Below are positions 6,751-7,460 of a stretch of 44,658 nt of DNA, piece after piece. The notes beneath the pieces are model-generated. The model was given only the letters and a program-made list of their open reading frames with translations, had not been told where the DNA came from and did no database searches. This stretch comes from an uncultured bacterium. GTDB lineage: Bacteria > UBP6 > UBA1177. Location: the NCBI GenBank assembly GCA_905235605.1, contig CAJOMF010000011.1:5001-49658 (forward strand), given 5' to 3'. The position numbers were made by a program, and so were the translations under genes. The stretch's first letter is position 1. Each line of letters starts with the position of its first letter.

Positions 6751-6778
6751 TTGACATTTTTATTTTCATTCATATAAT
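6751..6778 (+). promoter_or_regulatory. Consensus sigma-70 promoter of the type III TA locus
   Basis: A perfect TTGACA (6751-6756), 16-bp spacer and perfect TATAAT (6773-6778), preceded by a long A/T tract (about 6690-6750) that could act as an UP element. Transcription should begin near 6785. A very strong promoter is expected for a type III antitoxin RNA, which must be made in excess over the toxin mRNA. Confidence 0.85.
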
Positions 6779-6784
6779 TCGCAA

Positions 6785-6836
6785 ATGTAAGGTCTCCATT
6801 AACCTGCGGGTTACCGCAAAGAGATGAACTTTAAGA
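6785..6836 (+). ncRNA. Candidate type III antitoxin RNA (ToxI/AntiQ-like), apparently a single unit
   Basis: A ~50-nt transcript between a consensus promoter and an intrinsic terminator, directly upstream of an AbiQ/ToxN-like toxin gene, which is the standard place of a type III antitoxin. It contains AGGT (6790-6793) able to pair with ACCT (6802-6805). It also has two mutually exclusive hairpins: TAACC-tgcg-GGTTA (6800-6813) and TGCGG-gtta-CCGCA (6805-6818). TCTC and GAGA could close an outer helix. Known antitoxins are tandem arrays of 35-50-nt units; I see no second copy. Identification rests on context and foldability, not on sequence similarity to a known antitoxin. Confidence 0.6.
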
Positions 6837-6872
6837 AAGGCCGTTCACGAAAGTGGGCGGCCTTAGTTTTTT
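6837..6872 (+). terminator. Intrinsic terminator between antitoxin RNA and toxin gene
   Basis: Stem AAGGCCGTTCAC / GTGGGCGGCCTT (12 bp with G-U pairs) capped by a GAAA tetraloop and followed by AGTTTTTT. In type III loci a terminator here lets most transcripts end after the antitoxin, with read-through supplying toxin mRNA. Confidence 0.9.
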
Positions 6873-6881
6873 AGGTGTATC

Positions 6882-7460
6882 GTGTTTTCACTAAAAGATA
6901 AACTCACTTTCGTCAATATTGATCAGGATTACTTGAAATATTTGCACGAAAACTGCTCTGAAGTCTTCTACAAACCGATTGGCTACGACAACAAACCTTA
7001 TATCGGAATTTTGATAAACGAAGATGAAAACAAATATGTTATTCCCCTTTCGTCCGCAAAGGAAAAACACAAATTCTGGAACAATATCGAGTCTGACAGA
7101 TTTCTGATATATGAAAGCAGCAATAAAAAACCGCTTTCAAAGAACGCTGTATTCAAGGAAAATCCCGACGGAACCGTCAAACAGATTTTTTCAGTCATCG
7201 ACTTGAAGAAAATGCTCCCGATAAAAGAAGGCTTATACACCAGAGTTGATTTGACAACCAATCCTCAAGATTCTGTCGAAACACGGAATTATAAAAACCT
7301 GATGAACAAAGAATTTGCTTTCTGTCTTAAAATTCTGCCTCTCATAATCCAAAAAGCGAACGAACTTTACGACAAACAGATATCGACAGGGAAAATCGTG
7401 AATTTCTGCTGCGATTTCAGACTTCTTGAAGAAAAAAGCAGAGAGTATTCCGCAAAATAA
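6882..7460 (+). CDS. Type III toxin, ToxN/AbiQ/CptN-family endoribonuclease
   Basis: A 192-residue protein with the hallmarks of the ToxN/AbiQ family. A 'x-ID-x-x-YLKYL' start is at ~12-21 and KPYIGILI at ~38-44. The active-site block PLSSAKEKH at 55-63 corresponds to the Thr/Ser-Ser-x-Lys active site of ToxN. IDLKKMLPI lies at 106-114, and the C-terminal CDFRLLEEKSREY at 177-189 matches the family's 'C-x-F-x-LLEEK-x-R-x-Y' ending. Such toxins cleave RNA and are held inactive in a complex with their antitoxin RNA; many give phage defence by abortive infection. Translation starts at GTG 6882 behind AGGTG (6873-6877), right after the terminator, as expected for low read-through expression. The gene is visibly more A/T-rich than the core genes, suggesting transfer. 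Which subfamily it belongs to is not resolved. Confidence 0.85.
   Translation: MFSLKDKLTFVNIDQDYLKYLHENCSEVFYKPIGYDNKPYIGILINEDENKYVIPLSSAKEKHKFWNNIESDRFLIYESSNKKPLSKNAVFKENPDGTVKQIFSVIDLKKMLPIKEGLYTRVDLTTNPQDSVETRNYKNLMNKEFAFCLKILPLIIQKANELYDKQISTGKIVNFCCDFRLLEEKSREYSAK

What the first reader, a model, noticed from the sequence alone, without database searches (positions are those of the whole stretch)
6751..7460. Complete type III (RNA-antitoxin) toxin-antitoxin locus of the ToxN/AbiQ type
All four expected parts are present in order: a perfect consensus promoter, a short structured RNA, a strong terminator with a GAAA tetraloop, and a GTG-started toxin with PLSSAKEKH and a CDFRLLEEKSREY ending. 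Such loci often act against phages. The toxin is clearly divergent from the textbook ToxN/AbiQ proteins I can recall, and it sits in an A/T-rich, repeat-bordered island.
Basis: partly seen in the sequence, partly recalled or inferred. Interest (0 to 1): 0.75.

Follow-up and report, generated by a model that had tools for sequence, protein, structure and literature searches.

The report
Toxin gene with one-unit RNA antitoxin
This is a real bacterial toxin gene of the ToxN kind, held in check by a small RNA; unlike the textbook systems, whose RNA is a row of repeated units, it has a single unit, and several large viruses of bacteria carry copies of that RNA unit without the toxin, apparently as a ready-made antidote.

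Summary
Window 6751-7460 carries a 12/12 sigma-70-type promoter, a structured RNA, a terminator with a GAAA loop, and a GTG-started ToxN/AbiQ-family toxin (Pfam ToxN_toxin E 4e-40; predicted fold matches solved ToxN and AbiQ). It is one pseudoknot-type unit of about 50 nt filling the stretch from predicted transcription start to terminator, with an extra covarying hairpin. This unit is near-invariant across a rumen/gut candidate genus (records labelled UBP6) and Treponema, while the toxin diverges to about 60% identity. Single-unit antitoxins recur in at least two other ToxN subfamilies of these bacteria; a human-gut relative has two units, the nearest outgroup three. The 7-nt 3' tail tracks the toxin clade whereas the hairpin does not, so the tail probably sets partner specificity. 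The same RNA unit, without ToxN, occurs in four large phage contigs (two near tRNA genes), probably as natural antitoxin mimics, and solitary in some Treponema genomes. I read the locus as a ToxIN-like toxin-antitoxin module with a minimal one-unit RNA. Function is inferred, not shown.

The parts
6751..6778 (+). Promoter: TTGACA (6751-6756), 16-nt spacer, TATAAT (6773-6778); predicted transcription start about 6784-6786
   Evidence: 12/12 consensus match; the hexamers are conserved in position in relatives. Transcription start not measured.
6786..6836 (+). Single antitoxin RNA unit (one copy, no tandem repeat)
   Evidence: R1 covariance-model match, 72 bits (this sequence was in the training set); invariant 15-nt and 9-nt blocks in relatives; no tandem repeat
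6790..6805 (+). Proposed stem S1 of the pseudoknot: AGGU 6790-6793 with ACCU 6802-6805; loop 1 CUC 6794-6796
   Evidence: Outer pair A-U, also G-C in phage L071 and G-U in phage L072; same geometry as other ToxI units
6797..6826 (+). Proposed stem S2: CAUU 6797-6800 with GAUG 6823-6826
   Evidence: Invariant within the subtype, so no covariation test is possible; supported by the equivalent helix CCGCU:GGUGG in outgroup L160 and by the 7-nt tail length. CUC:GAG is an alternative.
6806..6817 (+). Extra hairpin inserted in the pseudoknot's last loop: GCGG 6806-6809 with CCGC 6814-6817
   Evidence: Three of its four pairs show changes on both sides; the whole structure exceeds all 500 shuffles
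6827..6833 (+). Predicted 7-nt 3' overhang AACUUUA; predicted ToxN cut just after it
   Evidence: Conservation in three of four phage copies ends here; tail type tracks toxin clade; E. coli ToxI also has a 7-nt 3' overhang (PMC8860590). Cut site not measured.
6837..6872 (+). Intrinsic terminator, 12-bp stem with GAAA loop (6837-6864) and U run; sets antitoxin-to-toxin ratio by read-through (inferred)
   Evidence: folded as expected
6873..6875 (+). Likely ribosome-binding AGG directly after the terminator's U run
   Evidence: sequence
6882..7460 (+). ToxN/AbiQ-family toxin, 192 aa, GTG start; K38, S57, S58, K60 correspond to the ToxN active-site K33, T52, S53, K55
   Evidence: PF13958 E 4.4e-40; PADLOC AbiQ E 4e-23; phmmer to 4ato, 2xd0, 7d8o, 4glk; AlphaFold pLDDT 85 and Foldseek to the same four

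Best explanation
The locus is an RNA-antitoxin toxin-antitoxin module that works like ToxIN but with a minimal antitoxin. From one strong promoter most transcripts stop at the terminator and give a small RNA that is one pseudoknot unit plus terminator; a minority read through and translate ToxN, an endoribonuclease. The 5' end of the unit is set mainly by transcription start, a few nucleotides before stem 1; ToxN cuts once, after ...AACUUUA, releasing the terminator, and stays bound to the product. Each RNA bridges two toxin molecules (3' tail to one active site, 5' tail to the next), so separately made single units close into a ring without being cut from a longer array. When a phage stops host transcription the short-lived RNA is lost and ToxN cleaves RNA. 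Shown here: architecture, toxin family and fold, active-site residues, single unit, its conservation, hairpin covariation, tail-to-toxin linkage. Inferred: toxicity, neutralisation, cut site, stoichiometry, phage defence.
For: Toxin family and fold. No repeat in the RNA, yet the unit is near-invariant in relatives whose toxins are as low as 59-60% identical. One unit in every window-type spirochaete/UBP6 locus found, isolate Treponema JC4 included. Predicted start-to-terminator lengths fall in steps: 33-38 and 52-57 nt for one unit, 64-76 for two, 87-126 for three. Hairpin and outer S1 pair covary, 0 of 500 shuffles as good. Same pseudoknot geometry as one-, two- and three-unit relatives. Tail type needs one change on the toxin tree (0-1 of 500 shuffles as low), while the hairpin is shared between toxin clades (L045 with L003; L042 with L001; L116 with L117 in one genome). 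One artificial CptI repeat is fully antitoxic (PMC4627078).
Against: No expression, toxicity or rescue data. Stem S2 never varies, so that helix is argued by homology only; an alternative CUC:GAG pairing is not excluded, and a shuffle scan of the window RNA alone does not single out the proposed pseudoknot. AbiQ needed at least 1.8 antitoxin repeats and ToxI-Pa was reported to need 2.5 (PMC5086642), so one unit might be weak. The 5' end set by transcription start is a promoter-position argument only.
Confidence: 0.83

Rival explanations
1. Decayed locus: only the last unit of a former array remains and it no longer neutralises properly, the toxin being weak or inactive.
For: Broken ToxN copies are common nearby (L013 in the same genome; L047, L038, L153, L155, L157, L159).
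Against: Here the toxin is intact with its active site, the promoter is 12/12, and the same single unit is held nearly letter for letter in many species with intact toxins.
Confidence: 0.05
2. The RNA is mainly a cis-acting leader that controls toxin expression (attenuator), not an antitoxin that binds the protein.
For: The RNA lies directly upstream with a terminator and the ribosome site touches the terminator.
Against: The unit also stands alone, without toxin, in phages and in Treponema genomes, where a leader has no purpose; its tail follows the toxin clade.
Confidence: 0.07
3. An ordinary tandem-repeat ToxIN locus in which short-read assembly collapsed the repeats.
For: Many genomes here are metagenome assemblies.
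Against: Two- and three-unit loci of similar period assemble well in genomes of the same genus; the isolate Treponema JC4 has one unit; the unit runs into the terminator at the same place in all species.
Confidence: 0.02
4. A side question: the phage copies are accidental captures with no function rather than antitoxin mimics.
For: Only four contigs; no expression data; their hosts are unknown; L066 has a different tail.
Against: The four share the bacterial core (GGTCTCCATTAACC ... AAAGAGATGA) but carry different, complementary hairpin stems, which shows selection on the fold; three of four keep the AACUUUA tail and diverge right after it; none holds ToxN; two lie near tRNA genes.
Confidence: 0.25

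Closest known systems
ToxIN of Pectobacterium, Bacillus and E. coli; AbiQ/antiQ of Lactococcus (type III toxin-antitoxin, ToxIN family)
   Same: ToxN fold and active site; promoter, RNA, terminator, toxin order; H-type pseudoknot with single-stranded 3' tail (7 nt in E. coli ToxI)
   Different: Those antitoxins are arrays of 2.8-5.5 repeats of 34-36 nt (PMC5086642); here one unit with an extra hairpin in the last loop. Toxin 22-27% identical in the structure alignments.
CptIN of Eubacterium rectale
   Same: Longer unit (45 nt); one engineered repeat is enough to neutralise (PMC4627078)
   Different: Natural CptI has two repeats and makes a heterotetramer; the CptN fold match here is weak (4rmo, E 0.011).
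AbiF / RCd22 of Clostridioides difficile
   Same: Toxin held by an upstream non-coding RNA that is not cut into units (PMC12373285)
   Different: Unrelated toxin (Abi_2, Cas13-linked); its RNA has two motifs.
Pseudo-ToxI of phage PhiTE
   Same: Phage RNA that imitates a type III antitoxin (PMC3475682)
   Different: Wild-type PhiTE carries 1.5 repeats that do not form one full unit and must expand under selection; the contigs here carry one complete, structurally conserved unit.

Membership tests
ToxN/AbiQ toxin family (PF13958) | Profile match above the curated cut-off over the full domain | tested here: met
   137.9 bits against 25, profile 1-159/159
ToxN/AbiQ toxin family (PF13958) | ToxN fold | tested here: met
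   Best four structure matches are 2xd0, 4ato, 7d8o, 4glk, TM 0.74-0.81 by target length
ToxN/AbiQ toxin family (PF13958) | Active-site residues K33, T52, S53, K55 | tested here: met
   K38, S57, S58, K60; Thr to Ser is the only change (residues named in PMC8860590)
ToxN/AbiQ toxin family (PF13958) | Endoribonuclease activity and toxicity | not testable with these tools
   needs experiment
Type III toxin-antitoxin locus (published criteria) | Rho-independent terminator directly before the toxin | tested here: met
   6837-6864 with U run
Type III toxin-antitoxin locus (published criteria) | Tandem array of nucleotide repeats before the terminator | tested here: not met
   No tandem repeat; one unit only. 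Criterion quoted from PMC5086642
Type III toxin-antitoxin locus (published criteria) | Antitoxin unit forms an H-type pseudoknot | tested here: inconclusive
   Geometry fits and the S1 outer pair covaries; S2 is invariant
Type III toxin-antitoxin locus (published criteria) | RNA binds and neutralises the toxin protein | not testable with these tools
   needs rescue assay
Rfam RNA families (any) | Match above the gathering score | tested here: not met
   No match to any of 4227 families at the RNA

The most novel reading that the evidence does not exclude
One-unit type III antitoxins are a stable, repeatedly arisen form: the 5' end is set by transcription start and a single cut makes the ligand, so the array is not needed. 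Large phages carry complete copies of the same unit, near tRNA genes in two cases, as standing counter-defence RNAs against these toxins. Solitary copies in Treponema genomes would give similar immunity to hosts.
Probability: 0.5. Interest if true: 0.78.

Novelty: new variant of a known kind. Interest (0 to 1): 0.6.

Why it matters
Type III systems were defined and searched for by their repeat arrays, and the arrays are built into the assembly model. A natural one-unit antitoxin, conserved across two bacterial lineages and present in several ToxN subfamilies, says the array is dispensable and that repeat-based searches miss loci. It offers a minimal system for asking how the RNA-protein ring forms, and a natural swap experiment (same core, different 7-nt tail) for partner specificity. 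Intact single-unit copies in phages without the toxin would be a natural RNA counter-defence that can be tested directly.

Tried and rejected
Hidden second repeat: tandem-repeat search found none. Rfam match: none at gathering level; weak Thr_leader and SprD hits are chance. Chance viral hits: L064, L065, L068, L069 and the relaxed-pattern hits L074-L086 show no unit structure and mostly lie in what look like coding stretches; discarded. Phage copies of two other antitoxin types (single-unit AAGGA-type, three-unit GGTGAGTCC-type): none found with the patterns used. Window-type ToxN in viral contigs: none found. Close copies of the RNA in plasmids: only a short chance match. First-guess helix CUC:GAG was dropped in favour of CAUU:GAUG because the latter gives the loop sizes and 7-nt tail of other ToxI units; not proven. 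NCBIfam had no model that matched the toxin.

Full report
Observation. The arrangement is repeated in ten relatives.

Toxin. The protein matches ToxN_toxin at 4.4e-40 over the whole profile, PADLOC AbiQ at 4e-23, and solved ToxN/AbiQ chains by sequence. A model from 14 family sequences (pLDDT 85, pTM 0.81) finds 2xd0, 4ato, 7d8o and 4glk as its four best PDB matches and CptN fifth. Residues K38, S57, S58 and K60 align with the active-site K33, T52, S53 and K55 (residues named in PMC8860590). It is a divergent member (22-27% identity in the structure alignments) with an insertion of about 20 residues around 80-100.

Antitoxin RNA. Type III loci have been defined by a tandem array before the terminator (PMC5086642), with 2.8-5.5 repeats in ToxIN systems. 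Here there is one unit, AAGGUCUCCAUUAACC-hairpin-AAAGAGAUGAACUUUAAG. In the relatives the first block and AAGAGAUGA are invariant over species although the toxins fall to 59-60% identity. The hairpin stem changes with compensation (CGG/CCG, UGG/CCA, AGG/CCU, UGA/UCA and others; 4 pairs with changes on both sides in the whole structure, 0 of 500 shuffles, and slid controls far lower). The alignment was fitted to a model with that hairpin, and that model was trained on 13 sequences, the phage copies included; but the complementary changes are visible by eye in the unaligned sequences. The outer S1 pair is A-U, G-C or G-U. S2 never varies. I place S2 at CAUU:GAUG because this gives the layout found in other units (4-bp S1, 3-nt loop 1, S2 of 4-5 bp directly before S1's second strand), matches the nearest tandem outgroup L160 (AGGU GUC CCGCU ACCU ... 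GGUGG), and leaves a 7-nt 3' tail as in E. coli ToxI. That step is inference; the automatic pseudoknot scan did not pick this pairing for the window RNA.

One unit is the rule here, not an accident. All 15 genomes of the window's genus carry ToxN, up to 7 matches each. L003, whose record is labelled UBP6_UBA1177, lies on a contig of the same length as the matching contig of the same-genus genome G011, which is how I name the group. Window-type RNAs occur in 11 of 15 genomes of that genus and 14 of 146 of the Treponema sample, one unit per locus. A second subfamily (AAGGA..UCGC.CCUU...GCGA, e.g. L022, L093, L101) is also one unit of about 36 nt in 15 loci, and two smaller groups (L049, L050, L136, L137; L094) are single while close relatives L135 and L098 have two. 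Other subfamilies in the same genera have two or three. A human-gut scaffold, MT837915 (L143), has a window-type toxin with two tandem units, and L160, 39% identical, has three. So copy number has changed several times. Assembly collapse is unlikely, because two- and three-unit loci of similar size assemble in genomes of the same genus and the isolate Treponema JC4 has one unit.

Start and tail. In nearly all subtypes the predicted start lies only a few nucleotides before stem 1, and the distance from start to terminator is quantised by unit number (a few loci escaped the automatic scan and were read by eye). For a one-unit RNA this means that transcription start can give the 5' end and one cut the 3' end. 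The 7-nt tail is AACUUUA or AGCUUUA with one toxin clade and AAGAUUA or ACGAUUA with the other, one change on the toxin tree, while hairpins are shared between clades, even between two loci in one genome (L116, L117 in G095). The core therefore recombines and the tail stays with its toxin: the tail is the best candidate for specificity, in line with the stronger 3' contact measured for E. coli ToxI.

Solitary copies. Five RNA matches in Treponema genomes have no ToxN in the fetched flanks (L145, L147, L150, L152, L156), and others sit by toxin remnants (L153, L155, L157, L159). Four IMG/VR contigs of 139-218 kb (L066, L070, L071, L072) carry one unit each and no ToxN anywhere in the contig (the contigs may be incomplete). 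Their hairpin stems differ from each other and from bacteria but are complementary; three keep AACUUUA and diverge right after it. L072's unit follows a run of four tRNA genes and is followed by an endolysin gene; L066's lies in a non-coding stretch about 0.9 kb from a tRNA-Trp gene. L071's lies between phage genes of unknown function. The known precedent, phage PhiTE, carries 1.5 repeats that do not make a full unit until expanded (PMC3475682). I found no report of natural complete one-unit mimics in the held library, which lacks most subscription papers.

Verdict. The toxin is a ToxN family member; the locus works, in all likelihood, like ToxIN, but it fails the tandem-array criterion, so I file it as a one-unit variant. 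Function remains to be tested.

Noticed in passing
L066 990-1031 (-), L070 2280-2319, L071 10837-10875, L072 8386-8425: Window-type antitoxin RNA units in four large viral contigs that hold no ToxN; compensated hairpin stems; L072's is next to four tRNA genes.
   Followed up: partly
L145, L147, L150, L152, L156 (Treponema genomes): Solitary window-type antitoxin RNAs without ToxN in the fetched flanks; L145 and L147 have their own terminators.
   Followed up: partly
window 5544-6452 (-): ORF6N-domain gene with a weak PLD-like C-terminal match, hitting PADLOC candidate defence family PDC-S05 (E 9.5e-116), right beside the toxin locus.
   Followed up: no
window 7755-8593 (+): Fragments of an ATPase-like gene with a DUF4143 C-terminal part (E 1.9e-15); the N-terminal part looks deleted, probably a pseudogene.
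   Followed up: no
L013 / L056 (own genome, contig C32): A second ToxN locus of another subtype with an intact-looking two-unit RNA and promoter but a truncated toxin.
   Followed up: partly
L022, L023, L025, L057, L092, L093, L095, L101, L105-L108, L111, L139, L141: A separate ToxN subfamily whose antitoxin is a single unit of about 36 nt (AAGGA..UCGC.CCUU...GCGA) with S2 covariation (UCGCG:CGCGA, UCGCA:UGCGA).
   Followed up: partly
L066 346-489 and 850-993: Direct 144-nt repeats (90% identical) and other repeats in a long non-coding, structured-looking stretch of the phage contig around the antitoxin-like unit.
   Followed up: no
window 6599-6615 and 7501-7521: Dispersed low-copy repeats (8 and 4 genome copies) on either side of the locus; similar repeats flank ToxN loci in sister genomes.
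   Followed up: partly
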